Below are positions 37,342-62,980 of a DNA stretch of 64,000 nt, one piece after another (the first letter of the stretch is position 1; each line of letters starts with the position of its first letter). This DNA comes from Paraphaeosphaeria minitans (taxonomy: Eukaryota > Ascomycota > Dothideomycetes > Pleosporales > Didymosphaeriaceae). The stretch lies in the NCBI GenBank assembly GCA_015832175.1, contig WJXW01000019.1:248001-312000 (forward strand), given 5' to 3'. Below the pieces are notes generated by a model. That model made no database searches and had not been told where the DNA came from. It saw only the letters and a list, made by a program, of their open reading frames with translations. The translations under genes and the position numbers were made by a program.

Positions 37342-38273
37342 TCCGAGTCCGACATTACGAATGCACCAGAACAGTCTTCTCAGTCCATTGATCTACCGAA
37401 TCGAGATATTTATCGCCGTACGGACTACGTCATCCGCGAAGCCAAAGAACGACGAATCACTGCTCGTTATAGCCATTTCCTCAATGATCAAAGCATCCAC
37501 ACTCTACAGGGTCCGAGGTTCATGTCTCGCAGCCAGCGCAAACTCGAAATGGCTCTAAATGCCCTCGATCTCAACCATATGTGCGACATTTTCGACCGCA
37601 CCTCTGCGAAAAAACTCCTCTGTGTTGACTTAGGGACCATTCGAGGCACAGAGATTATACAAACAGATCCGGACGTTATCAAAGTCATTTATTCTCCGCT
37701 CGTCGCGCTTACCGTCTTGGCTTACGACTGTGTTGGAACATCGCTCCAGAGCCCTGCTAAATACTCTCAGAGGTTCGCAGATGCTGCGCATAGCGTCTTG
37801 TTCAAGCGCGCATTTGGTTCAGGCCTCGAAATTCACGACGTACAGGCTGTGCTAATGTGAGACGCTCTGAATCTCATGGGATGTACCATTCCACTAATCT
37901 CAATAGACTCATGCTTCTCGAGATCGAAAAACACGGCGACACCGAGACAACGGAACAAAAGCTGAACAAAGTCCAAGTACTACACACGTTGGCGAAGCTT
38001 GCTATGGACTTGGATGGTTGGGCCTCAAATAAGGAGAAGTTTTCGAAAGCGTACCAAGCTGTATATCAGACGTGCGAGACATTCTACATCCTGCAGAAGG
38101 ACGTGGAGGCCCTAGTTGGCTTGCAAACTGATGTACAGATTGGTTCCGCCCGCTCGGCGGTTTTTGCCGTCGCTCTTTGCTCCTGGGATGGATCTGAGGG
38201 GCGGTGTCAAGAGCGGATGATTAGGCAGCAACACCGAAATACTGTAGGCATGTTTGATACGCAGAACTTTTGA
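37342..38273 (+). CDS. Hypothetical helical protein, at least two exons
   Basis: After the acceptor at 37341 the frame reads SSESDITNAPEQSSQSIDL and on through RSQRKLEMALNALDLNHM and IKVIYSPLVALTVLAYDCV. An in-phase intron at 37857-37906 (GTGAGA...CAATAG, 50 bp) joins to LMLLEIEKHGD and a long helical region (VQVLHTLAKLAMDLDGW ... LQKDVEALVG). The first exon and a proper start are not identified; the visible frame gives about 290 residues. No domain recognised. The all-helical tail resembles the N-terminal regulatory helices common in fungal STAND or ankyrin proteins, but this is not enough to name it. Confidence 0.5.
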
Positions 38274-38518
38274 TTTTGCGGTCGTCGCTGCGGTCACATC
38301 TGGAGTGTTTGCAAGGCATGCATTGATTTTTGCGCTTGACTTCGACCATCTTTCCAACAGTGGGCACGTGATGCCCCACCGTTCCTCCCACACTAACAAG
38401 GGCCTCCCTAGACGAAATGGCCGCGATCGACCGCCACTGTCTGGGCCTCCCGCACGTTGTGGCTACTATCCGTTGTGCAACCGACGGTCCCCACCCGCTC
38501 CATTAATGATCCCTGCTG

Positions 38519-38930
38519 TCTCGCTGCACCCGTCCATCTTCGCTGCGCGCCTCCATCCTCGCTGTGTCCCTCCATCCTCGCTGCGCGCCTCCATCCTCGC
38601 TGCGCGCCTCCATCCTCGCTGCGCGCCTCCATCCTCGCTGCGCGCCTCCATCCTCGCTATATCCCTCCATCCTCGCTGCGCGCCTCCGCCCTCGCTATAT
38701 CCCTCCATCCTCGCTGCGCGCCTCCATCCTCGCTGCGCGCCTCCATCCTCGCCGCGCGCCTCCGCCCTCGCTATATCCCTCCATCCTCGCTGCGCGCCTC
38801 CATCCTCGCTGCGCGCCTCCATCCTCGCTGCGCGCCTCCATCCTCGCTGCGCGCCTCCATCCTCGCCGCGCGCCTCCGCCCTCGCTATATCCCTCCATCC
38901 TCGCTGCGCGCCTCCATCCTCGCTGCGCGC
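38519..38930 (+). repeat. 19-bp GC-rich minisatellite, about 21 copies
   Basis: The unit is ctccatcctcgctgcgcgc, with variants ending in ctatatcc or reading ctccgccct. Variants recur in a fixed order, so there is a higher-order unit of several repeats. Because 19 is one more than a multiple of three, every frame cycles through the same 19-residue peptide. The array ends about 24 bp before the ATG of the next gene. Confidence 0.95.
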
Positions 38931-38954
38931 CATCCTTACTACGCCTGCGCTATA

Positions 38955-40040
38955 ATGTCTACGTCTACGATAGTTGCTGACATACTGCAAGGCAACGAGT
39001 CCCACTGGATTGAGTTCTTGGTGGAGGGCATCCCCACTCTGCTGAGAAGTAAGACCGGCTATGCGCGAATGTACATCCTCTACAGACTCTTGCAATACCA
39101 ATTTGATTCGTTGTTGAACAAAGATCTCGAATCTGAGTCTGTCATCAAAAGCTCCCTAGAGCGGACGGCAGAGAGGTTAAAGAGCATGCACACTAAAGCG
39201 TATAATTCTGAAATCACGGTGGATGCATGGTTGCAGGGACGAGCCCAACGTAAGGATCGCGACCAGGACCACGACCAAGACGAGGACCACGACCTGCTCT
39301 CGAGATATGCAGACTCACGTGCCTCCGATGTGTATATGTGCAAACTTGCGTTCAGCTCGAAGGTTGCTGATGTTCTCCATCGTGCGCCCTTTGACAAACA
39401 ATACCACAGCAAGAGATCCGGTCCCCCCCAAGTGCTCGCTCATCTCGTCTCGTATCTCTGGCAAAATCAAGAGTTGTACCAAAACAATCAAAACAGAGTT
39501 AAGAGTTCACGAGTTGATATCGCACTGGTGGATAGCGCAAGTTGTCTTTCAACCTCAGGCAGCACGGAAACGACTATTGCATCCGGCCAAAAACGTCAGC
39601 TTGAACCATGTGCTTCATTGCAAACTTCGGACGGGAAGCGCTCACGTTACCAAAGCGACCAGGATAGCGATGAGCACGCGCATGATCTCTTCGAAAACAA
39701 ATACAACCTGCACAAACCTCATGGACTTGCCCCACTTGAGCCAATTTTGTGGGACATTCCATGGGAGTCACACATATTAGCAATCCAACGATGTGGAGGA
39801 CAACATGCTGTAGCATTGGTGACTAAGGCCCCGATTGAAGCGATGGACAAGGGCGAATCTTATGACAGGTACCATATCTTAGGACACCATCTTCGCCCAT
39901 TACAGGATTGGGTGCCAGAGATGTCGGGGCGGCTTTCAAATGGTGCTGAAATGTTGCACTTGACAGTGGCCATACCGAGGGACAGATCGGAGACCGAGCA
40001 ACGCATCCCCGATTCTATACTAGCTTTTACGATTCGTTGA
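38955..40040 (+). CDS. Hypothetical protein, 361 aa
   Basis: A single uninterrupted frame from ATG 38955 (MSTSTIVADILQGNESHWI) to TGA 40040. The N-terminal 90 residues are helical. A charged Asp/His/Arg cluster (KDRDQDHDQDEDHD) lies at about 100-113. The middle is Ser/Gln-rich, and the C-terminal 110 residues look globular (LEPILWDIPWESHILA ... DRYHILGHHLRPLQDWVPE). The frame is also open upstream through the minisatellite, but the ATG after the array is the sensible start because the array is low-complexity in all frames. No family recognised. Confidence 0.65.
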   Translation: MSTSTIVADILQGNESHWIEFLVEGIPTLLRSKTGYARMYILYRLLQYQFDSLLNKDLESESVIKSSLERTAERLKSMHTKAYNSEITVDAWLQGRAQRKDRDQDHDQDEDHDLLSRYADSRASDVYMCKLAFSSKVADVLHRAPFDKQYHSKRSGPPQVLAHLVSYLWQNQELYQNNQNRVKSSRVDIALVDSASCLSTSGSTETTIASGQKRQLEPCASLQTSDGKRSRYQSDQDSDEHAHDLFENKYNLHKPHGLAPLEPILWDIPWESHILAIQRCGGQHAVALVTKAPIEAMDKGESYDRYHILGHHLRPLQDWVPEMSGRLSNGAEMLHLTVAIPRDRSETEQRIPDSILAFTIR

Positions 40041-47158: not shown

Positions 47159-48788
47159 ATGGATAACATTAGCGACGCGGTGCGCGCGCTACGTAATAAA
47201 AAGCGTATTATTGTGATTGCAGGTGCAGGTATTGCGACGTCAGTTGGTGGTGCGTTCAGTTAATAAGGAGACTACGCTCTGTACAAGGCTTACACATCTA
47301 GTTCCTGATTTCCGCTCAGCAACTGGCATCTTTGCCAAATCAGGCGGGAAATCGTCCTTTGAGGCCGCGCATGTCTGGGCGTCGTCAGAGTCAATGGGAT
47401 CCTTCTACGAACTGCTATGCAACATACAAGCAAAAGCTAGAGAGGCCCTCCGTCAGACTCCATCTCCAACATACCGACTACTGCGGATGTTGAAGGATAA
47501 TGGCTCCCTGCATCGACTATATACGCAAAACATTGACGACATCGACACCTCACTCTTAGGCACTGAAGTACCTCCACCGACAACTGCGCCATGGCCGACT
47601 GTTATCCAATTACATGGAAGCGTGAGCCATGCTCGTTGCAACTATTGTAATTCTACCGTTAAGGACTTTCACGTGGAAACCTTTCTTGAAGGAGATACAG
47701 CTTGCCCTACCTGTGCGGAATGAGCCGAGGTCCGCAAACGTGACCATCCACATTTGCGGCCCAATACATCCCAAGGCACTCTTCGGCCTCGGGTCGCCCT
47801 GCATGGCGAAGCCAACCCGGATGAACCGGTAATTGTAAACTGTTTTAACCATGATAGTAAAGCCCGTCCCGACGCGATTGTCGTAATTGGGACAAAACTT
47901 TCTATACCTATTCTCCAGCGTATGACATCCATATTTTGCAACAACGTCCGGGCAAGGAAAGGCGTCTCAGTCTGGATCAGCAATGAGCGACCCGTTCAGA
48001 AAGTTGCTCGAAAGTTCGACTACCGACTCCAACACAAATGTGATGATGTTGCGTTAATGTTGTTACAGTCGTTGCAGGAAAGCCAGTGCGCTGGAAAACA
48101 ATCAGTCAACAAGGGTGCGCTTCAGACGAGCGGTTGCGACGATGAGATATTGGAGACGCCAAACCCTTCAACGCTTGACGAATGCATTAGCACCGCTGAA
48201 AAGTGGCTTGCTAGTCGATATGATTATTGCAACGAGGGAAATACGCTTAAGGCCCCTTATGTTCATGCCCGGCCAGTATTGTTCCGCGACCGCACAGTGT
48301 GCGACAACCTTGAAAATTTCGGTGCAGTTCACCTGTGCCTGGGGGACGCCTTTGGTGTCTTCTTCAAGCACGCTGCGCAGTCCAAGCACAACGTACGGAT
48401 TGGACTATTTGCAACATGCGAGTCCAACGCGATTCAACTACGCCGAAAGCAACTTTTGGGTAGCATATGGACATTTGCTCTCTTCAGGAAGAAGCAGAGC
48501 ACGCGAATGGGGATCCTCATATATGATCCAAAGACCCAGCTTTGCAACAAGGATGGAACCTTTCAGAGCAAAACGAGGAAGCTAGGGAAAACCCGCGAGG
48601 CGGCTGTCAAAGGATATCTGAAGTACGCTAACGCCAGCCCCAACGTCGAAATTTGGCACAACAAGCATGCCGCCCGAGACGATGACTTCCTGGCAGTAAT
48701 TAATCTTATGAATGGACTTGTCTGTAAGGGGGACGAGCCATTCGAAGGTGATAACGATAGTCGGTTGGAGGGGTTCGTGAGCATCTGA
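47159..48788 (+). pseudogene. SIR2-family NAD-dependent deacetylase (HST3/HST4-like) with one nonsense codon and a C-terminal extension
   Basis: Exons 47159-47249 and 47302-48788 flank a 52-bp intron (GTGCGT...TCTAG) that rebuilds VGVPDFRS. Sirtuin motifs in order: NAD-binding GAGIATSVG and PDFRSATGIF, then LYTQNIDDID, the catalytic-histidine motif QLHGS, zinc ligands CNYC and CPTC, the GExNPDEP-type loop (HGEANPDEP), VVIGTKLSIP and the ribose-binding ISNER. The frame is broken once, by TGA at 47721-47723 directly after the second zinc pair. Past it the same frame is open for 355 codons. The sirtuin fold should end near 48075. Some 235 further residues (IDECIS-like helix, ENFGAVHLCLGDAFGVFF, SIWTFALFRKKQ) form an extension I cannot name. 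Family role: nuclear H3K56 deacetylation and silencing. Likely a young pseudogene or a sequencing error. Confidence 0.8.
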
Positions 48789-54324: not shown

Positions 54325-57300
54325 TCATTGTGCGAGGGTGAGGTCTTCAAGTTGTTGCTGGATCTCCTCAAGAGGCGCTTCGTTCGTTGCGTCAGGTCTC
54401 TCTACTTCTACCAGCCCAAGTTGAGTTAGGAATCCTTCCCACTTGTTGACTGGGAGGACCTTGGTGAAGCCATCGGCGATCATATCTGCCGAGTGCACGT
54501 ACTCCACCTTGATCTTCCCAGTAGAGACTTCTTGTCTGAGCCAGTGATTGTAAATGTCGACGTGTCGTAGTTTTGTCTGGAGCTTGGAGATTTCCTCAGT
54601 TACCAGTCGAATAGTTTGCTTGTTGTCGCATTGGATGGTAATTGACGATGAGAGTAGTTCAATCCGCAGTTCGTCCAATAGTCGTGATATGAAGATTGCT
54701 TCCTTGGCCACCTGTGATAGGGCGAGAAGCTCTGCTTCGGTTGTCGAAGTTGTGACAGTGTCTTGTTTGTTTGCTCTCCAGGCAATGAGTCCGTCGAATA
54801 GCTTGATAGCGTATCCTTGCGAGCTCTTTCTGTCCAGTGTGTTGTCAGCAAATGAGGCATCGCTGGCTACTTGAAGGCAGTTGCCTCCTCCGAGCTGCAG
54901 TGCTCTCCATCTGGTGCTGGACAAGTATAATAGTACTCGATCGGCGGCATTGTGATGTGCGGAGCCCGGATTTGACAGGAACCGAGCCAGCCTTGAGGTT
55001 GCAAAGGCGATGTCCGGTCGGGTCGTTACTGCCGCGAACAGAAGTGACCCGATTTTGCGTTGGTATTTGTTGATTTCTGAGGGTGTTGCCAAGCCTGTTC
55101 GAGGCTTTAACTCGGTAGCGGCCATGGGGGTATCATGGCGGATGTCTTTCCTATCAGCCAGTCGGCTAATCTTCTCTACGTATGCGGCTTGAGAGAGTTG
55201 GATCTTCCGGTGACTTCGGTCCCTGATGACCTCTACGCCAAGGAACCACTGAAGGTCGTTTCCTCCAGTAAAGGTGTACTTCTCCTGTAGACGCTTGATT
55301 GTTTGCTGGGCTTCTTGCTCTTTCTGTTTGTGATAAGCTAATACGATATCGTCTACGTAGAAGAAGACGATGATTCCGTCTTTGAGAAGGCAGCATGGCT
55401 CGTGAGGCACAGTCTGGAAGCCAAGAGCTTTGAGTGTTGTAGTGAATTCTTTCTGCCAAAGGAGGGGTGAGATCCGTAGACCGTACAGAGCCTTGTTGAC
55501 TTGGAGGATCGTTCCAGGTTTTCGATAGCCGTGGGGCATTCTCATGTATACTTCTCGATCCATCGTTGCATGGACAAAGGCGTTCGTGACGTCGTATTGT
55601 TTGAGCTCCAAGTCGTGGTGGGCTGCAATTGCCATCAGCATTCGGAATGACCGGCTGGCGAGTGTGGCTGCGTAAGTGTCCTGCGAGGTAATGTTCCGTT
55701 GTTGGTCGCCTCGGACGACTAATCGCGCCTTGCACTTCAGCAAGCGATGGTGCTTATCAAGTTTGTAGGTGTATACCCACATACAGTCAAGGATCTGTTG
55801 TCCTGTCAGTTTGATCTTCTTCATCGGTACCTCTGACCATGATTTCATTTGTTGATGGCTTGCAAGATGGGCCTGTTCTGCTTCTCTGAACAGTTCACCC
55901 ATCGGGTGGTCCTCAAGCTTGGTCCGGCACGTTGGCAGAGGTGGGAGTTGACTTCGATGGGGCTTCAAGCCTTTGGCGAGCAATCTCATCATCTTCGCCT
56001 TGTCCACAACATCCCCTCTGTAGTTCCCAACGTGACCGGCTTGGGTTCCCGCCATGAAAGCTGCTGCCCAGGGGACAGTCTTAGATGAACTATGTTGTGT
56101 CACTTCAGATTGGTTTCCAGCCATTAACCGAGCAAGTAATGCTGCGGGTGGCGGTGTAGATGGAGGAGTTAGGTAATTGTCCCTGATTTTTCTCCCTTGA
56201 TAGTAGCCTGGTGGGTCTACTTCGTCTTGATGGTCTGATGAGTCCGCAGCGGCATCATCCTCATGGAAGGACTCCGTCTCTGGTTGCTGAGTAGGAGTTG
56301 GTAGTTCAATGGTTCTCACATGCGTGGCTATTTCTTCCAGCGTGTTGTGCATGAGGTTGTCCATTAGATCTTCAGTCTTCCCATTGAATATAGACTGCTC
56401 GTCAAAGACAACGTCTCGGGTGCTTATCACCTTGGCGAGTGATGGTATCCAAATGCGATAGATGTTTGAGGATCGGTATCCAACAAGATAACCAACCCAA
56501 GCTTTTGGATCGAGGCGTTGCAAACGTGATTTGCCTCGGTGAGTGTCGTCTGTCATCGCAAAGGCTTTGCAGCCGTACGCCTTCAGGTGGGCGAGATTGG
56601 GTTTCCGTAGTGAAGTTACGATCCCATTACTGAACGCGACTCGTGTGAAGAATATCTCGTACGGCGTCTTCCAGTTGTTCGCGTAATTCGGTGTTCGATT
56701 GTAGAGGTATACTGCAGCCCTCGTAACTTCAGGCCACAGTTCCCAGGATAGGTTGGCGTCGAGTCGCATTGCGCGCGATTTCTCTTTATTCACACCCCCT
56801 GAGCGTTCGGCACCTCCGTTCTGAGCTTGGGTGTCTGGGGCCGAAGGCTCGATGATGATTCCTTGGGTCGCCAACCAACGTTCTACTTCTGGTTTGACTG
56901 TGGCAATCTCATTGTCTGCCTCGATAGTCTTGACGGTTATGTTGTAGTGGTTCTTGAGGAATAGGAGGAAGGTCGAAAGTATCCTGATGATCGATTTCGC
57001 CGTTCTGTTGTCGGTGAAGTAAAAGTCCCATTGTAGTCCTGAGAATTTGTCGGTAATCAACATTTGGCTCTTTTCTTTGGTGACGCTCTGTGTTTCGTAT
57101 GTATGGAAATCGATGCTTAGCCTTTCTCCAGGTCCTTCGGTGTTAATCCGTGGCGCGCGCCTGATTTGTCGTTTTGATTTCGCTCTGCCACAGGAGTCAC
57201 ACTCAACTGTCGTGATCCCTTTCACGCGCACCCCCTCAGCTTGCTGCACCAGGTGCTCGATTGCTGCTGGTCCAGGGTGTCCTAGTCTCTTGTGCCAAAG

Positions 57301-57822
57301 CATGGCGGAAGCTTTCTGTGGTGCTCTTTTCGTTCGCGAGGTAATCTTGCGTGCATGATGTGAGGCATGCGAGAGTGATTCATACTCGAGTACCCACTGG
57401 CCGTGGATCTCGGTGAGATTCCCGATGATTGCGTCGTCTGGGCCTCTCAGAGTAGTTGGGTCCACCTGCGTATCCCACCAGATTCCTCTCTGCCTTAGTA
57501 GTCGAAAAGAGACCAGATTGCACAATAGGTCAGGGCAGATAGCCACGTCGTGCAGGACTAGTTTGGTTATCCCAGACTGATTCTTAAGGGTCAGGTCAAT
57601 GGAGCCGTATCCTTTTATCCATATCTTCGTATTCCCAGCCCATATGTAGTCTCCGGGCATAGGAGGACGGAAGTTGTAGATGCGGTCGGGGTTGTTCGTA
57701 ATGTGGCAGGTTGATCCTGAGTCAAGGATGAACGACCACTTCAATGGGTAGTCGTCGATTTCTGTCCTGACAGACGCCGATGTGAACGCGGCGTTGACTT
57801 TTGATATTCTCCGTCCCTCTAG
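54325..57822 (-). CDS. Copia Pol polyprotein (protease, integrase, RT, RNase H)
   Basis: Open from the codon after the Gag TGA to the stop at 54325. Counting from the residue encoded at 57744: aspartic protease LDSGSTCHIT near 8-17; GAG-pre-integrase LWHKRLGHPG near 150; integrase zinc-finger end CDSCGRAK near 182; integrase core with D in IDFHTYE, D in EADNEIAT and E in NGGAERSGG; reverse transcriptase from about 650 (KARLVVRGDQQ, DVTNAFVHA, ALYGLRISPLLW, catalytic FYVDDIVLAY); RNase H from about 950 (SDASFADNTLDRKSSQGY, STTEAELLALS, LRHVDIYNHWLRQE, ADGFTKVLP). There is no stop or shift inside. Its only upstream entry is through the Gag stop, since the first in-frame ATG is well inside. Confidence 0.95.
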   Translation of the reverse strand, partial: LEGRRISKVNAAFTSASVRTEIDDYPLKWSFILDSGSTCHITNNPDRIYNFRPPMPGDYIWAGNTKIWIKGYGSIDLTLKNQSGITKLVLHDVAICPDLLCNLVSFRLLRQRGIWWDTQVDPTTLRGPDDAIIGNLTEIHGQWVLEYESLSHASHHARKITSRTKRAPQKASAMLWHKRLGHPGPAAIEHLVQQAEGVRVKGITTVECDSCGRAKSKRQIRRAPRINTEGPGERLSIDFHTYETQSVTKEKSQMLITDKFSGLQWDFYFTDNRTAKSIIRILSTFLLFLKNHYNITVKTIEADNEIATVKPEVERWLATQGIIIEPSAPDTQAQNGGAERSGGVNKEKSRAMRLDANLSWELWPEVTRAAVYLYNRTPNYANNWKTPYEIFFTRVAFSNGIVTSLRKPNLAHLKAYGCKAFAMTDDTHRGKSRLQRLDPKAWVGYLVGYRSSNIYRIWIPSLAKVISTRDVVFDEQSIFNGKTEDLMDNLMHNTLEEIATHVRTIELPTPTQQPETESFHEDDAAADSSDHQDEVDPPGYYQGRKIRDNYLTPPSTPPPAALLARLMAGNQSEVTQHSSSKTVPWAAAFMAGTQAGHVGNYRGDVVDKAKMMRLLAKGLKPHRSQLPPLPTCRTKLEDHPMGELFREAEQAHLASHQQMKSWSEVPMKKIKLTGQQILDCMWVYTYKLDKHHRLLKCKARLVVRGDQQRNITSQDTYAATLASRSFRMLMAIAAHHDLELKQYDVTNAFVHATMDREVYMRMPHGYRKPGTILQVNKALYGLRISPLLWQKEFTTTLKALGFQTVPHEPCCLLKDGIIVFFYVDDIVLAYHKQKEQEAQQTIKRLQEKYTFTGGNDLQWFLGVEVIRDRSHRKIQLSQAAYVEKISRLADRKDIRHDTPMAATELKPRTGLATPSEINKYQRKIGSLLFAAVTTRPDIAFATSRLARFLSNPGSAHHNAADRVLLYLSSTRWRALQLGGGNCLQVASDASFADNTLDRKSSQGYAIKLFDGLIAWRANKQDTVTTSTTEAELLALSQVAKEAIFISRLLDELRIELLSSSITIQCDNKQTIRLVTEEISKLQTKLRHVDIYNHWLRQEVSTGKIKVEYVHSADMIADGFTKVLPVNKWEGFLTQLGLVEVERPDATNEAPLEEIQQQLEDLTLAQ

Positions 57823-57825
57823 TCA
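57817..57825 (-). promoter_or_regulatory. Gag stop in a UGA-CUAG readthrough context
   Basis: On the minus strand Gag ends GAG TGA CTA GAG, and the same frame then stays open through Pol. UGA followed by CUA is the established leaky-stop context, for example in fungal peroxisomal isoforms of glycolytic enzymes, and a G after it is also favourable. Readthrough is the simplest way to make Gag-Pol here. Confidence 0.75.
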
Positions 57826-59034
57826 CTCGTCAGGGATCTCAGGTGTTGGAGTATGTGACTGTTTGAGAATCGGCGTTCGTGATCGGGTCCTGCTTTGTCC
57901 GCGAATTAGCCCTTGGAATGTTGCGTCGTTCTTACGCTTGAAGTCAATGAGCTCGCTTATCGTCTCATTTGGTTTCCACCATTCGGGAGCTTTGTCTGGG
58001 TTGACATAGTAGCAGTCCCTAATGCTGTGGCGTTGTCCACAGGCAGGGCACTTTGCTCCCCCTGTCGTAGCTGGCTCTTGATCTGAAGGCCGCTTAAGCC
58101 TGGCATCTTTCTTGCCGGCTGTACGTTGGTTACGGGGTCTGCCCCGGTTTCGGTTGGATGGCGCGCTTTCAGCATGAGAGGCGTCCCTGTCATTGCTCTG
58201 GGTGGTTGCACCACCTTCAGCGAGATATGGTGCATTATCAGACACAAAGGCTGCTTTGTGTTTCCCTGATCTAAGGGGATAAAATGTCATCATGTGCTCT
58301 CGGAAGCGTTTCATCATCTCCTTCCGGCTCATGCCAGCTGCAAATCGACCATTGTCTTGAAAGTTTGTAGACCATATGGGAGCAACTTTGTTTACGGCTG
58401 CCAGGAAGTCTTTTGTAATCACGTTCAATTGTGATAGTTCGGCGACTCGATATGTCTCCGCCTCAGTGGCTGCTTGGTCATACTCAGCTAGCCATGTGTC
58501 CCATTGCGACGCGCTTCTCATCGGTCTGAGTGAGGCGAGGTATCGATCGCGGGCTCGTTCTTGTTCGATTTGTTCGTCGACTCCAACCGTTAACTTCAGG
58601 TCGGCAATCCATTGGCGGAGTGACTTCTCAGGAAGGCAGCACGTGCGCAATAGGTGTGGCGATACGGTCGACTGGATAAAAGCCACGATGTGTTGGAGGC
58701 TTGCTTGTTCCTTCTCGAACTCGTGCCTGTCGTTCTTGTATTGTTCAACAAGGATCTTGTAGTATTCAAGGTCTTCCTTGAATGCCTTTTGTCCTGCTGT
58801 CGACAGTTCGGTCGGTCTCATTGGGATTTCGACGTTCGCGGCTGGTGCGTATCTAGCAATTACCGGGGCTCTAATAGCTACCGGTTTTGTTATTAGCGGG
58901 TTAGTTGCCGTTGGATTTACTTTGTCCCAGATGTTGTGAACGACGCATCTAGCTTGCAGTTGCGTTATCCATCCTGTGTAGTCCGTATGATCTCTCAGCG
59001 TTACTGTCGGATCGCGGTAAGGTTGCTGCGCCAT
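57823..59034 (-). CDS. Copia Gag, 403 aa
   Basis: Starts at ATG 59034 (MAQQPYRDPTVTLRDHTDY), only 32 bp inside the 5' LTR. The N-terminal region has the LxxxTDYTGWITQLQ pattern of Copia Gag. A helical capsid-like region follows (to about 290), then a basic, Arg-rich nucleic-acid-binding stretch (RNRGRPRNQRTAGKKDARLK) and a zinc knuckle CPACGQRHSIRDC near residue 335. The knuckle spacing is CX2CX3HX4C, one residue shorter than the usual CX2CX4HX4C. It ends at TGA 57823-57825, with Pol continuing in the same frame. Confidence 0.92.
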   Translation of the reverse strand: MAQQPYRDPTVTLRDHTDYTGWITQLQARCVVHNIWDKVNPTATNPLITKPVAIRAPVIARYAPAANVEIPMRPTELSTAGQKAFKEDLEYYKILVEQYKNDRHEFEKEQASLQHIVAFIQSTVSPHLLRTCCLPEKSLRQWIADLKLTVGVDEQIEQERARDRYLASLRPMRSASQWDTWLAEYDQAATEAETYRVAELSQLNVITKDFLAAVNKVAPIWSTNFQDNGRFAAGMSRKEMMKRFREHMMTFYPLRSGKHKAAFVSDNAPYLAEGGATTQSNDRDASHAESAPSNRNRGRPRNQRTAGKKDARLKRPSDQEPATTGGAKCPACGQRHSIRDCYYVNPDKAPEWWKPNETISELIDFKRKNDATFQGLIRGQSRTRSRTPILKQSHTPTPEIPDE

Positions 59035-59066: not shown

Positions 59067-59276
59067 TGTCAGATAAAATGCTCGTATGCGATACGGTATG
59101 ATGATCGATAATGGTTGTGTGTTGATTTTAATTGATGGAATGCTATGTTCTTTGTATTTTTTTTTTTTTTCTCTCATCTCTGTTTGGTTGGTTTGACCCC
59201 TGGGCTAGTGCGACAAGTGTGGTGGTCCCTGCTCGATTGTGCAGATCCGACCTCAACGCCCTCGTTCTATCTGACA
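59067..59276 (-). repeat. 5' LTR of the Copia element
   Basis: 210 bp, identical to 54068-54275 apart from two extra T in the poly-T run. Gag starts 32 bp inside it. Confidence 0.95.
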
Positions 59277-59752
<476 letters not shown>

Positions 59753-59814
59753 TTTCTTCCTTAATCGATTTTATGTATTTGTTTATTTAAGTTTCTATTA
59801 TTATAGGTATAAAG

Positions 59815-60126
59815 TGTTGGTTTGGCTCAATCTGCAATCAAGCATTTGAGGGTTGATAGTATACTATCGTGCAAAGGGTGAGAAGTAGGTTCAATTGATT
59901 ACGTCTTGTCTATCGTACAAAGGGGCACTGAGGGCTTTATGAAGTCTCTGCCTCTTAGCGCTGACCTAAGCAGGGGGTCCTTGTGCAGGTCCTCATAGGT
60001 AGGCAAGGCCTTATGAAGTCTCTGCCTCTTAGCGCTGACCTAAGTAGTGGGTCCTTGTGCGGGTCCCTATAGGTAGGCAGGCCCCTATTTTACTTAGTGC
60101 TATTTGTACGATAAACTGTACAGACA
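59815..60126 (-). repeat. 3' LTR of the gag-only element
   Basis: 312 bp. Contains an internal tandem repeat of about 74 bp (59937-60010 and 60011-60084; ttatgaagtctctgcctctt in both) and three one-mismatch copies of the octamer (59867, 59913, 60104). Confidence 0.93.
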
Positions 60127-60318
60127 CTGGCAACTTTTCTTTTGTGCGATGGCTTATGTCTATCGTACGCTTTCCCTTTCCTATCCTTCTCCATCTATAC
60201 AGTTAGCCTTCCCCCATCAGAACAGGTTGTGAGGTAGGTGCAGTGTCGCTGTGCGGTAGAGGTCCTGTTTGCACCTGCTCTTGTGCAAACAGGTAGTGAC
60301 AGCTAACCTGCTCAGTTC

Positions 60319-62211
60319 TTACCCTACCCCTTCGCACGGTAGTAGAGTCGCATCGCGCGATAAGGCTCTTTCCAGGCATGTGTCCTGTGCGCAAACAGAA
60401 GGTGGGGTGTTGAGCAATGCGATGCTCGGCGCTGGGTCTCGGCAAGCAGGTATAGAAGGATCGCTCCCAGTCGTGCGATGAAGGTATGCAGTAGAAGTGA
60501 GGTATGAGGTAGCCTTCTGTGCTTCTTCTTCATCACTCCATTGGTCTTTTTCATCTTCCTCCTCTTTCGTGTGATAGTCTTCTTCCTCTGGCTCTCCTTC
60601 AAAGTCAAGGATGTATGCTTGTACATCTATAGCAGAGGGTTCATGTTCGTAGAAGTCGGCGTACGACGACATGTATTGCCTTCTAGCTCGCTGGGTATCC
60701 CTTGGTGGATGGTTGGTGGACCAGCATCCTTCTTTGTGGCACACAAAGCATTTCTGCTTCGTGCGAGAGCTTGAACTTCTAAAGTTACTTCTTCTTTTTA
60801 GTCTAAAGGTTAATCTGCCTCTAGAGGGGCCAGATCCTCTCGTGCGATTAGGATTGTTGTATCGTCGATCAGTGTAGTACACCTCTTCACTGTCTTGGAG
60901 GAACTGTGACTTCTTCCTGTCTTCAGCAACTTGGAGTGACGCACGAAGGTCGCTGAGCAAGCCTTCTACTGTGTTTTTGGGGTTGAACATAGCTTGTTCA
61001 AGGTCAGGATGGCCGCGGCATGCTCGTACGATAGTGGTGTGTAGTTGTAGTTCACCACTAAAGCCTTGTCCAAGAGCCCTTTGGGCTAAGGTGAGCTTGT
61101 CAATCATTGCTTCCAGGGCCTCGTGCGATGTAGCAGCTGGATTATCCCTTTTATAGCGTTCAAAGGTAAGAGTGGTCCAGTCTGTCCAGTACTGATTGTG
61201 ATTGACACTGGTGTTAAAGTGCCTGTTCAGTCTGTCGTACAATTCATCCCATGGAAGTCCTGGTCCAATGTTGTGTAGGTAGTAGGTGCTCGCACGATCA
61301 GAAAGGATTCCTGGGAAGATGTTTGCATACTGGTCCTGTGGTATGCCCAGCCTGTAGCATAGTTCTCTAAAGACTTTTGCCTTGTCTGCCAGGATGTCGT
61401 ACGGCCTACCAGTGTAGTTATTCTCTTTACTCCAAGCCTTCTGAAAGAGAATGATCTTGTCTGGCTGGATATAAGCATGATCTCCTGGTTGTTGAGGAGA
61501 CTGGGAGTGTCTAGCCTCTTCGTACGATGTGGTTTGTCGGGCAAAAGCAGTCTGGGTTTCAGGCTGCTGCCACTGGTGTGGCTCCACATATGGTGTCTCT
61601 GTCCTCGCACGTATAGGGATGGGCCCCAGCTGTGCTCCATGTGTATATGCATTGCCTGCAGATGGTGTAGGTTGCATTGTTGGGATCGTGCGAAGCGGTT
61701 CGGGTTGCGGTTGCGGAGTCATCGTGCGAAGGGTCTGTAGCTTATAGTCAAGCTGTGACAGTTTGAAGAGTTTCTTTGCATGGGTGTCCTTTGTTGTAGA
61801 ATCAGTAGCGACAAAGCCTTCCTTTGTAAGAAAAGCAATAAGCTCTCTTCTTGCCGCACGACTAATCTCATCAAAGGTTCTCTCCTTCCAGTCGTTAAAA
61901 TCTTCAGCAAAAGAAGAGATTACCTCTTCACCTTCAAGGCTGCTCGCGCGATATTGCGCGATTATGTACACTGCATAAGTGTTCAGCCGTTTTGGAGAAG
62001 GGGGTGGGTGGCTGTGTAGATCCACTCTGTCCACCCAGTACTTTCGTGCGATCTCTCCTCTTAAGGTGATAGCCTTGATGTTTGTTGCTTCCTCCACTTG
62101 TTGAAGCCATATTGCTTCGGCTTCGTCTTTCTGCTGAGGAGGCAGTATTGATTGTTGCGCGACGTCCTCAGGTTGTAGTTCCTCTGGGAAGTCTCCTAGT
62201 CTTGAGGCCAT
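60319..62211 (-). CDS. Gypsy-type Gag protein, 630 aa
   Basis: Starts MASRLGDFPEELQPEDVAQ at 62211. Residues 1-250 are helical and Pro/Gln-rich. From about 255 to 440 is a capsid-like region (FQKAWSKENNYTGRPYDIL, RLGIPQDQYANIFPGIL, LPWDELYDRLNRHFNTSV). A basic Arg-rich stretch follows, then a zinc knuckle CFVCHKEGCWSTNH near 489-502. There the third and fourth ligands appear as C and H (CX2CX4CX4H), a form I know from fungal Gypsy elements. The acidic tail is EEEDEKDQWSDEEE. Just after DPSIPACRDPAPSIALLN, where the fungal Gypsy polyprotein would enter the protease, the sequence switches to an unrelated tail and stops. The frame is intact. Confidence 0.88.
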   Translation of the reverse strand: MASRLGDFPEELQPEDVAQQSILPPQQKDEAEAIWLQQVEEATNIKAITLRGEIARKYWVDRVDLHSHPPPSPKRLNTYAVYIIAQYRASSLEGEEVISSFAEDFNDWKERTFDEISRAARRELIAFLTKEGFVATDSTTKDTHAKKLFKLSQLDYKLQTLRTMTPQPQPEPLRTIPTMQPTPSAGNAYTHGAQLGPIPIRARTETPYVEPHQWQQPETQTAFARQTTSYEEARHSQSPQQPGDHAYIQPDKIILFQKAWSKENNYTGRPYDILADKAKVFRELCYRLGIPQDQYANIFPGILSDRASTYYLHNIGPGLPWDELYDRLNRHFNTSVNHNQYWTDWTTLTFERYKRDNPAATSHEALEAMIDKLTLAQRALGQGFSGELQLHTTIVRACRGHPDLEQAMFNPKNTVEGLLSDLRASLQVAEDRKKSQFLQDSEEVYYTDRRYNNPNRTRGSGPSRGRLTFRLKRRSNFRSSSSRTKQKCFVCHKEGCWSTNHPPRDTQRARRQYMSSYADFYEHEPSAIDVQAYILDFEGEPEEEDYHTKEEEDEKDQWSDEEEAQKATSYLTSTAYLHRTTGSDPSIPACRDPAPSIALLNTPPSVCAQDTCLERALSRDATLLPCEGVG

Positions 62212-62231
62212 GTTGTTGTTGTCTTTCTTGG

Positions 62232-62573
62232 TCGTGCGACGTGTCTGCGTTTGGTTGTCGCTGGTTCAATCGTGCGACGTGTTTGCGTTCGGTTGTCGCT
62301 GGTTCAATCGTGCGACGTGTTTTTCGGGGTTGTGAATGTGCTCACTATCTCCTTTCTTTTCTGTAGAATAGCTTAGACTAGATCGTGCGACTCTTTACAG
62401 ATGTGCGCGCTTTGTTTCTGCTTGTCGTACAATCCGAAATTCGATCTCCAGTAAAGGTACTATCTCCTTTCTTTTCTGTAGAATAGCTTAGACTAGATCG
62501 TGCGACTCTTTACAGATGTGCGCGCTTTGTTTCTGCTTATCGTACAATCCGAAATTCGATCTCCAGTAAAGGT
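62232..62573 (-). repeat. Leader tandem repeats: 38 bp (about 2.3 copies) and 115 bp (2 copies)
   Basis: Copies of the 38-bp unit start at 62232, 62270 and 62308, each carrying one exact octamer. The 115-bp unit occupies 62344-62458 and 62459-62573 and differs by about one base. Each copy carries one exact octamer (62383, 62498) and one variant (62425, 62540). They lie in the 5' untranslated leader between LTR and Gag. Confidence 0.9.
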
Positions 62574-62663
62574 AACAATACAGAGCCTGCGCATCCAGCT
62601 TGCAGGGCGCTCCGTCTTCAGACCTTGCTAGTTTGCAGTTGATTAGAATCAACCACTAATTAG

Positions 62664-62975
62664 TGTTGGTTTGGCTCAATCTGCAATCAAGCATTTGAGG
62701 GTTGATAGTATACTATCGTGCAAAGGGTGAGAAGTAGGTTCAATTGATTACGTCTTGTCTATCGTACAAAGGGGCACTGAGGGCTTTATGAAGTCTCTGC
62801 CTCTTAGCGCTGACCTAAGCAGGGGGTCCTTGTGCAGGTCCTCATAGGTAGGCAAGGCCTTATGAAGTCTCTGCCTCTTAGCGCTGACCTAAGTAGTGGG
62901 TCCTTGTGCGGGTCCCTATAGGTAGGCAGGCCCCTATTTCACTCAGTGCTATTTGTACGATAAACTGTACGGACA
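62664..62975 (-). repeat. 5' LTR of the gag-only element
   Basis: 312 bp, three transitions different from the other LTR, all within the last 45 bp as read on the plus strand. Followed by TAAAG, the right-hand target duplication. Confidence 0.93.
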
Positions 62976-62980
62976 TAAAG

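What the first reader, a model, noticed from the sequence alone, without database searches (positions are those of the whole stretch)
59815..62975. A gag-only retroelement carries an octamer, TCGYRCGA, about every 85 bp, in coding and non-coding parts alike
Seen directly: 17 exact copies of TCGYRCGA start at 60353, 60471, 60759, 60840, 61024, 61121, 61290, 61520, 61686, 61722, 61944, 62044, 62232, 62270, 62308, 62383 and 62498. About 20 one-mismatch copies include three per LTR (59867, 59913, 60104 and their LTR partners). At equal base frequencies about 0.2 exact copies would be expected in 3.16 kb. Inside Gag, exact copies fall in all three codon phases (3, 2 and 7) and encode different residues (Ser-His-Glu, Ile-Ala-Arg or Ile-Val-Arg, Leu-Arg-Thr), so protein sequence cannot explain them. 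Twelve of 13 non-palindromic copies share one orientation, with sense RNA UCGCACGA; this favours an RNA-level role, while the Y-R centre would also suit a dimeric DNA-binding protein. Inference: a dispersed packaging, trans-mobilisation, silencing-escape or host-factor binding array. I know of no description of such an array.
Basis: partly seen in the sequence, partly recalled or inferred. Interest (0 to 1): 0.88.

Follow-up and report, generated by a model that had tools for sequence, protein, structure and literature searches.

The report
Octamer array throughout fungal Copia retrotransposons
A fungal jumping gene carries the same eight-letter word about every hundred letters, in genes and spacers alike, and the proteins of relatives in other fungi seem to bear the imprint of that word, so something in the cell probably reads it.

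Summary
The element at 59815-62975 has 17 exact TCGYRCGA; 1000 dinucleotide shuffles average 0.09 (max 2), and Gag has 12 against 0.36 (max 4) in 5000 synonymous shuffles. The host is Paraphaeosphaeria minitans. The element is a pol-deleted derivative of a fungal GalEa (Copia) retrotransposon, and the RIP-decayed autonomous partner carries the array through pol too. I therefore looked for the octamer's shadow in relatives' proteins. Tripeptides that such a word would favour are in excess in all three codon phases in one supported clade (29 of 32 rows); of 65,536 octamers CCGTACGA, TCGTACGA and TCGCACGA rank 1, 2 and 5 there. A second, distant group has TCGTACGA at rank 1; joining both is rejected (AU p 0.0002). 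In the first clade sites turn over while density persists. The sense form is UCGYACGA; the reversed form is not in excess, which favours reading as RNA, though DNA binding stays open.

The parts
59810..59814 (.). target-site duplication TAAAG, left copy
59815..60126 (-). 3' LTR (sense is the minus strand), 312 bp; 3 differences from the other LTR, all C/T or G/A; one-mismatch octamers at 59867, 59913, 60104
60319..62211 (-). Gag ORF, 630 aa, zinc knuckle CFVCHKEGCWSTNH (C2C4C4H); holds 12 exact octamers in three codon phases
60353..60360 (-). octamer 1, TCGCGCGA (palindrome)
60467..60470 (.). junction of the pol deletion: below it the element matches the 3' end of the autonomous copy, above it its gag; 4 shared bases
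   Evidence: blastn coordinates; 8 of the 40 scored copies start at query base 149-160
60471..60478 (-). octamer 2, sense TCGCACGA
60567..60574 (-). one-mismatch site TCGTGTGA; exact octamer in 6 of 29 other copies, base C at its sixth place in 20 of 29, so probably lost here by a C-to-T change
60759..60766 (-). octamer 3, sense TCGCACGA
60840..60847 (-). octamer 4, sense TCGCACGA
61024..61031 (-). octamer 5, TCGTACGA
61121..61128 (-). octamer 6, sense TCGCACGA
61290..61297 (+). octamer 7, the only one in reverse orientation (sense TCGTGCGA)
61520..61527 (-). octamer 8, TCGTACGA
61686..61693 (-). octamer 9, sense TCGCACGA
61722..61729 (-). octamer 10, sense TCGCACGA
61944..61951 (-). octamer 11, TCGCGCGA
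62044..62051 (-). octamer 12, sense TCGCACGA
62232..62315 (-). leader octamers 13-15 (62232, 62270, 62308), sense TCGCACGA, in a 38-bp tandem repeat
62344..62573 (-). 115-bp tandem duplication with octamers 16 and 17 (62383, 62498), sense TCGCACGA
62628..62636 (-). CHSeq2-like half of the Conserved Hairpin Site (sense GCAAACTAG), 18 nt after CHSeq1; the A/A mismatch is there, plus one further mismatch and a G-U
   Evidence: read against PMC5445492 section 10
62655..62663 (-). CHSeq1 CTAATTAGT, palindromic with the last A of the 5' LTR
   Evidence: read
62664..62975 (-). 5' LTR, 312 bp, with one-mismatch octamers at 62716, 62762, 62953
62976..62980 (.). target-site duplication TAAAG, right copy

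Best explanation
Shown: the window holds a pol-deleted GalEa-type Copia element whose family carries TCGYACGA (sense strand) throughout, far above chance, in coding and non-coding parts. Inferred from protein shadows: the same word is embedded in the polyproteins of a supported clade of fungal GalEa elements in several genera, where sites come and go while density is kept, and a distant second group gained it separately. Inferred mechanism: each octamer is a weak binding site, and the array makes the element's full-length RNA a multivalent target of one sequence-specific RNA-binding factor. I think a host factor more likely than Gag (about 60 to 40), because two distant lineages converged on one word and, by eye, the Gag zinc knuckle does not differ between array and non-array elements. 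Binding would act on the fate of the whole transcript: export or protection of unspliced RNA, or its collection into particles. The gag-only derivative keeps the array and so stays a good substrate for functions supplied in trans.
For: Density above dinucleotide and synonymous shuffles. Array in pol: places compatible with a RIP-decayed octamer number 10 (leader plus gag), 3 and 10 (pol side and 3' part), against means of 0.10, 0.06 and 0.09 for 300 permuted words; exact in single copies at 7 places. CpG o/e outside sites with at most one mismatch is 0.37; the neighbouring Copia has 0.91 and no exact octamer. Shadow: TCGYRCGA first of 64 YR palindromes in 31 of 127 rows, window Gag included; within-clade column null 708 against 487.5, first of 64; SHE is the most over-represented of 8000 tripeptides, and 10 of the top 40 are codable by UCGYACGA in the clade against 0 of 40 in 79 other rows; unbiased ranking of 65,536 octamers; in a scan of five-row neighbourhoods of 188 rows the 25 best by weakest phase are all array rows. 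Strand: at windows the columns do not predict, SH 44/12.6, SY 37/16.3, RT 92/61.8 (YA centres) but SC 7/5.1, SR 12/12.4, RA 41/49.6 (YG centres); at 23 sites of the autonomous copies the witnessed centres are CA 9, TA 10, TG 3, CG 1. Excess in 18 of 18 stretches of 100 residues; 176 distinct sites, 102 seen in one row only. Second origin. Exact octamers of the two young copies are internal, the LTRs holding only one-mismatch copies, which speaks against a promoter role.
Against: No reader is identified. RNA accessibility of octamers is not special: mean rank 0.52 among GC-matched positions. The TA form is a perfect DNA palindrome; it dominates on the pol side, in the second group and in much of the first clade, and says nothing about strand. 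Same-orientation arrays of a DNA-binding protein exist (VANC21, PMC5735166 section 8). Cys is rare in proteins, which weakens the SC count, though not RT against RA. In P. minitans itself the strand bias is CA 13 to TG 3, fewer once tandem copies are merged, and RIP can turn CA or TG into TA. In the second group most sites are shared between rows (19 seen in one row only), so turnover is not shown there and shared descent inflates its score. One older LTR has an exact TCGTACGA. Relatives' DNA was not seen.
Confidence: 0.5

Rival explanations
1. DNA-level array: the octamer is a binding site for a dimeric DNA-binding protein, of the host or coded by the element, that sets chromatin state, silencing escape or transcription of inserted copies, as VANC does for VANDAL elements.
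For: TCGTACGA is a perfect palindrome and is first of 65,536 octamers in the second group and second in clade 1. VANC21 motifs are short, dense and arrayed in one orientation. Repeats of TAAATCTCGTACGATAGCA in the Pfcyp51 promoter of Pseudocercospora fijiensis, more numerous in isolates of reduced fungicide sensitivity, contain TCGTACGA (passages of PMC6637983); this lead was found after the fact.
Against: The reverse-oriented TG form should equal CA and does not. VANC motifs lie mainly in non-coding parts and spread by tandem repeats; here 12 of 17 lie in Gag in all codon phases. The young LTRs have no exact octamer. The word is not enriched genome-wide.
Confidence: 0.3
2. Gag-read packaging array: Gag itself binds UCGYACGA so that full-length and gag-only RNAs are collected into particles. 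This is a special case of the best explanation, so its odds lie within that figure.
For: Sense strand, whole transcript, kept in the gag-only derivative. Gag has a zinc knuckle and a capsid-like core; the best Foldseek match is a dArc1 capsid, E 0.1, probability 0.99.
Against: Knuckles of array and non-array elements look alike by eye. Close relatives of the second group lack the word. The excess is not confined to the leader end.
Confidence: 0.2
3. Composition or mutation artefact: CpG decay, RIP or codon bias happens to leave this word.
For: 13 of 20 one-mismatch copies are CpG transitions (list). CpG is depleted elsewhere in the element.
Against: Dinucleotide and synonymous shuffles; 16 permuted words with two CpGs give 0.06-0.13 per region; TCG is a strong RIP target, so RIP removes octamers; protein shadow in all three phases in other species.
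Confidence: 0.03
4. Protein-level selection for tripeptides such as SHE, IVR and HRT produces the word by the way.
For: Several codable sites are conserved protein positions.
Against: Three unrelated peptide classes rise together while most matched controls do not; 12 of 15 codable places in Gag are spelled as octamers; five leader copies are non-coding.
Confidence: 0.02

Closest known systems
Fungal GalEa (FunCo8) Copia retrotransposons, Donnart et al. 2017, PMC5445492 (outline, passages and section 10 read)
   Same: LTR ends TGT...CA, 5-bp TSD, C2C4C4H knuckle, CHSeq1 CTAATTAGT after the 5' LTR; CQPEA, QTDD and DTG(C/A) motifs in relatives
   Different: the held main text has 0 occurrences of 'TCG', 'octam', 'repeated motif' and 'non-autonomous'; its supplements were not seen
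VANC / VANDAL21 anti-silencing motif arrays of Arabidopsis (PMC5735166, abstract and sections 8, 9 read)
   Same: short motif at high density in one orientation, peculiar to one transposon family, with gain and loss of sites
   Different: element with a dedicated reader protein; motif mainly non-coding, spread by tandem repeats; here in all codon phases of a retrotransposon, no dedicated ORF seen
TR-GAG elements of plants (search listing only; description recalled)
   Same: non-autonomous LTR element that keeps gag
   Different: fungal, with array, and traced to an autonomous partner in the same genome
DNA uptake sequences, HIP1, Su(Hw) sites of gypsy, DSR/Mmi1 motif clusters (all recalled, no call)
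   Same: short words repeated in cis and read in trans
   Different: none known to me as spread through a retrotransposon's coding sequence in every phase and traceable in its proteins

Membership tests
Fungal GalEa Copia (FunCo8) | LTRs bordered by TGT and CA, 138-311 bp (one outlier 545) | tested here: met
   sense LTR TGT...ACA; 312 bp in the gag-only copy, one base above the range, about 240 bp in the autonomous copy
Fungal GalEa Copia (FunCo8) | 5-bp target-site duplication | tested here: met
   TAAAG on both sides
Fungal GalEa Copia (FunCo8) | C2C4C4H zinc finger in Gag | tested here: met
   CFVCHKEGCWSTNH in the window Gag; 17 of 18 clade-1 full-length relatives, 4 of 5 of the second group
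Fungal GalEa Copia (FunCo8) | no tRNA PBS; Conserved Hairpin Site CHSeq1/CHSeq2 after the 5' LTR | tested here: met
   CHSeq1 exact; CHSeq2 with the A/A mismatch, one more mismatch and a G-U; absence of a PBS judged by eye only
Fungal GalEa Copia (FunCo8) | large single ORF with KSRLVI, QTDD, CQPEA, ADxxTK, DTG(C/A) | tested here: inconclusive
   P. minitans pol copies carry many stops and show only decayed forms of two motifs; clade-1 relatives: QTDD, CQPEA, ADxxTK, DTG(C/A) 18 of 18, KSRLV 15 of 18; second group 5, 5, 5, 3 and 4 of 5
VANC-type anti-silencing array | element-encoded sequence-specific DNA-binding reader | not testable with these tools
   only Gag (and Pol in the partner) was seen; binding untested
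VANC-type anti-silencing array | motif mainly in non-coding parts, spread by tandem repeats | tested here: not met
   12 of 17 octamers in Gag, in three phases; tandem repeats account for the leader copies only
Gag-only non-autonomous LTR element (TR-GAG-like) | two LTRs, gag ORF, no pol, partner in the genome | tested here: met
   definition recalled

The most novel reading that the evidence does not exclude
Two lineages of fungal retrotransposons have independently rewritten their whole genomic RNA, changing amino acids where needed, to carry tens of copies of UCGYACGA as a multivalent address read by a conserved fungal RNA-binding factor; a cis code that overrides protein sequence across an entire mobile element.
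Probability: 0.42. Interest if true: 0.92.

Novelty: new variant of a known kind. Interest (0 to 1): 0.82.

Why it matters
If true, a short word under selection strong enough to leave an imprint in protein sequence marks a whole retrotransposon transcript in many ascomycetes, and the word is the same in two lineages. This makes a concrete question testable: what molecule in fungi recognises UCGYACGA (or TCGTACGA), and does it help or fight transposons? It also offers a general method: finding nucleotide codes through their shadow in protein alignments when the DNA is out of reach or decayed by RIP.

Tried and rejected
Scans of viral contigs and genome contigs for relatives' DNA found none; metagenome contigs could not be scanned. 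Octamer pairs elsewhere in the genome: at 15-45 bp 34 against 18 for the reversed word, at 60-90 bp 26 against 15; many hits belong to this family by place or sequence, one is an unrelated tandem repeat (C8:1838763); no second array family was recognised, but only these two spacings were searched. Four LTR-only loci gave no pol-bearing partner; the partner came through the P0016 search. RNA accessibility: not supported. Regular or helical spacing: none by eye. Other words in other GalEa rows: in 151 non-array five-row neighbourhoods the best weakest-phase z is 3.7, which is above that of the weaker array rows (3.2-3.5; two second-group rows below the listed 45); some close groups have words with high pooled z, such as TTAGGTTC 10.6 in a Talaromyces-containing group or AGGGG words up to 9.6, but weak in one phase, so pooled z in small groups is inflated by shared descent. 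In the second group TCGTACGA is first of 256 palindromes with all sites (61 against 17.0, all three phases), but only 11th when counting sites seen in one row alone, where CCGTACGG leads. Literature: (10 of 10 searches) listed no paper that I could recognise as describing such an array; I saw listings only, apart from three papers opened, and most subscription papers are not held. Weak points: the z of 2.4 that labels array rows was set; three clade rows (P0036, P0063, P0011) fall below it; 16 of 127 rows under 900 aa, several array-positive, were left out of the tree; P0068 was left out as near copy of P0054; the residue-shuffle tests are inflated by conserved positions and were replaced, and there P0007, P0011, P0013 and P0018 were weak or negative; the groups of the AU test (35 of 188 rows) were named after seeing a tree; in that tree P0163 sits with two non-array rows, so the second group needs two gains or a loss.
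Full report
What is there. The window is C19:248001-312000 of a 47.45-Mb assembly in 30 contigs. The best protein match to Gag is PMIN01_12114 of Paraphaeosphaeria minitans, 98% identical over 72% of the query, on a contig of 1,603,724 bases, the length of C15 here, so the host is taken to be that fungus. The element runs from 59815 to 62975, with 312-bp LTRs that differ at 3 places and a TAAAG duplication on either side. Its sense strand is the minus strand. It codes a 630-aa Gag with no Pfam match up to E 0.1. Two of 19 Gag relatives carry PF07727, the reverse transcriptase of Copia elements.

The partner. Of the 40 scored Gag-DNA copies (455 candidates) 32 match the whole query and 8 start at query base 149-160; all 8 lie beside a match to the Gag-Pol protein P0016. 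The copy at C10:1848508-1855760, about 7.25 kb, shares LTR sequence (92.5-95%), leader plus gag (89-90%) and a 344-bp 3' part (85%) with the window element. The window element is therefore this element with pol deleted, with a junction at 60467-60470. Its LTRs hold a 74-bp duplication that the C10 copy lacks. The 46 best pol matches carry 20 or more stops nearly without exception, and gag copies differ by C-to-T and G-to-A changes, the mark of RIP.

Membership. Terminal bases, TSD, knuckle, hairpin site (CHSeq1 CTAATTAGT directly after the 5' LTR, a CHSeq2-like sequence 18 nt on) and motifs in relatives fit the fungal GalEa clade of Donnart et al. 2017 (PMC5445492 section 10; test). The main text of that paper has no hit for an octamer array.

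The array. There are 17 exact TCGYRCGA, where dinucleotide shuffles give 0.09 and at most 2 of 1000; Gag has 12, where synonymous shuffles give 0.36 and at most 4 of 5000. 15 places in Gag could code the word, so 12 of 15 do. One-mismatch copies number 20 against 2.3, two-mismatch copies 8 against 24. The single mismatches are CpG transitions (13, that at 60567 included) or outer bases (7), never in the two central bases. CpG outside these sites is depleted (o/e 0.37; neighbouring Copia 0.91 with no exact and 6 one-mismatch octamers). In five autonomous copies, places where every base of the octamer is witnessed and every departure is a RIP product number 10 in leader plus gag (2195 bp), 3 in the next 1500 bp and 10 in the last 3080 bp; 300 permuted words average 0.10, 0.06 and 0.09, maxima 3, 1 and 2. 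The centres witnessed at these 23 sites are CA 9, TA 10, TG 3, CG 1: the sense form is TCGYACGA with few exceptions, though RIP can make TA from CA or TG.

Why copies in the genome cannot decide. Across 28 older copies octamer cells show 861 RIP-type changes and 4 others in 3680 bases; the internal average of other changes would give 10.6. That is no real test of selection. RIP in octamers against elsewhere: TCG 0.549/0.718, GCA 0.155/0.485, ACG 0.390/0.284, GCG 0.209/0.190.

The protein shadow. A word under selection at nucleotide level should leave three peptide classes: S-[HYRC]-[DE], [FLIV]-[AV]-R and x-R-[TA]-[IMTNKSR]. With a null made of each alignment column's own residues (own row left out), 127 rows split into two sorts: TCGYRCGA is first of 64 comparable words in 31, and the highest full-length scores are 37 against 11.5 (Truncatella angustata) and 36 against 11.1 (Xylaria grammica). 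On a tree of 111 rows, 28 of 31 rows of one clade (support 100) are enriched and 1 of 80 others. With a null from the clade alone (30 rows) it is still first of 64, 708 against 487.5. Without any motif given, SHE is the top of 8000 tripeptides and 10 of the top 40 are codable by UCGYACGA, against 0 of 40 in 79 other rows. Of 65,536 octamers CCGTACGA, TCGTACGA and TCGCACGA rank 1, 2 and 5 in the clade; in groups of 17, 24 and 30 other rows the best rank of the four TCGYRCGA words is 5016 and the highest z of any word 5.5 against 8.8 in the clade. The excess is seen in 18 of 18 stretches of 100 residues; 545 sites fall on 176 column-phase places, 102 of them in one row only; pairs at 50-55% identity share 30% of sites. 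So in this clade sites are gained and lost while the array stays. Named array hosts among these rows include Xylaria, Truncatella, Colletotrichum and Pyricularia; Pyrenophora, Talaromyces, Blumeria and Hirsutella rows are not enriched.

Replication and a second origin. A further search listed 120 of 563 proteins, 78 of them new. Five of the 78 are enriched: P0160 of Xylaria longipes, which falls in the clade (24 against 8.7, first of 64), and P0163, P0171, P0187, P0188, which sit near P0062, the one earlier outsider. In these five TCGTACGA ranks first of 65,536 (83 against 23.2) with SY 26/5.8, VR 21/8.0 and RT 36/9.4 but RA 20/17.5; the 12 nearest non-array rows (59-64% identity) have 47 against 47.1. 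Dropping P0171 as a near copy leaves 61 against 17.0, first of 256 palindromes, with all three phases up (22/4.5, 15/6.4, 24/6.1); but most of these sites are shared, so turnover is not shown in this group, and P0188 has CCGTACGG even higher. Holding both groups as one clade costs 87 log units, AU p 0.0002; four of the five form a branch, P0163 falls with two non-array rows. A scan of five-row neighbourhoods puts array rows in the first 25 places; the best non-array neighbourhood has weakest-phase z 3.7.

Strand. At windows the columns do not predict, YA centres are in excess (SH 3.5, SY 2.3, RT 1.5) and YG centres are little or not (SC 1.4, SR 1.0, RA 0.8). A duplex-DNA reader without direction would give CA and TG equally. 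This favours RNA but is not proof: VANC21, a DNA binder, also has same-orientation arrays, and the TA form is palindromic.

Mechanism. I hold the array to be real and kept by selection (about 0.95). That RNA is what is read I put at about 0.5, DNA at 0.3. The Gag model (mean pLDDT 76) has a helical N-terminal domain and a capsid-like core; no PDB match has E under 0.001, and the first matches are dArc capsids, so no reader domain is evident. A lead for the DNA reading: the Pfcyp51 promoter repeat of Pseudocercospora fijiensis contains TCGTACGA (passages) and shares 12 bases, CTCGTACGATAG, with window 61023-61034; this was found after the fact and may be chance.

Noticed in passing
54325-59034: A different Copia element (1139-aa Pol and 403-aa Gag ORFs, minus strand, both open) lies next to the element; it has no exact octamer and CpG o/e 0.91 and served as control.
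   Followed up: partly
59253-59753: About 500 bp of ATT trinucleotide repeat separate the two retroelements.
   Followed up: no
59815-60126 and 62664-62975: The LTR holds a 74-bp tandem duplication that the autonomous C10 copy lacks.
   Followed up: partly
62232-62573: Leader octamers sit in 38-bp and 115-bp tandem repeats; aligned lengths suggest that their copy number varies between genomic copies.
   Followed up: partly
47217-48788: ORFs with Sir2-like deacetylase motifs (LYTQNIDDID, QLHGSVSHARCNYC), by eye only.
   Followed up: no
38254-40040: Overlapping ORFs over a tandem repeat (SSLRASILAARLHPRCAPP-like units).
   Followed up: no
protein P0152: A fungal-type Copia polyprotein is filed under a Massilia metagenome-assembled genome, probably contamination.
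   Followed up: no
G000:C8:1838763-1838860: An unrelated 45-bp tandem repeat in the same genome carries TCGTACGA in each unit.
   Followed up: no
L031, L032, L034: Near-identical LTRs (96-99%) without gag match in the fetched 7 kb, apparently solo LTRs of the family.
   Followed up: partly
P0186, P0202, P0206, P0177, P0183, P0195: A neighbourhood of GalEa rows shows excess of AGGGG-type words in the protein shadow, weak in one phase; probably shared peptides, possibly another code.
   Followed up: no
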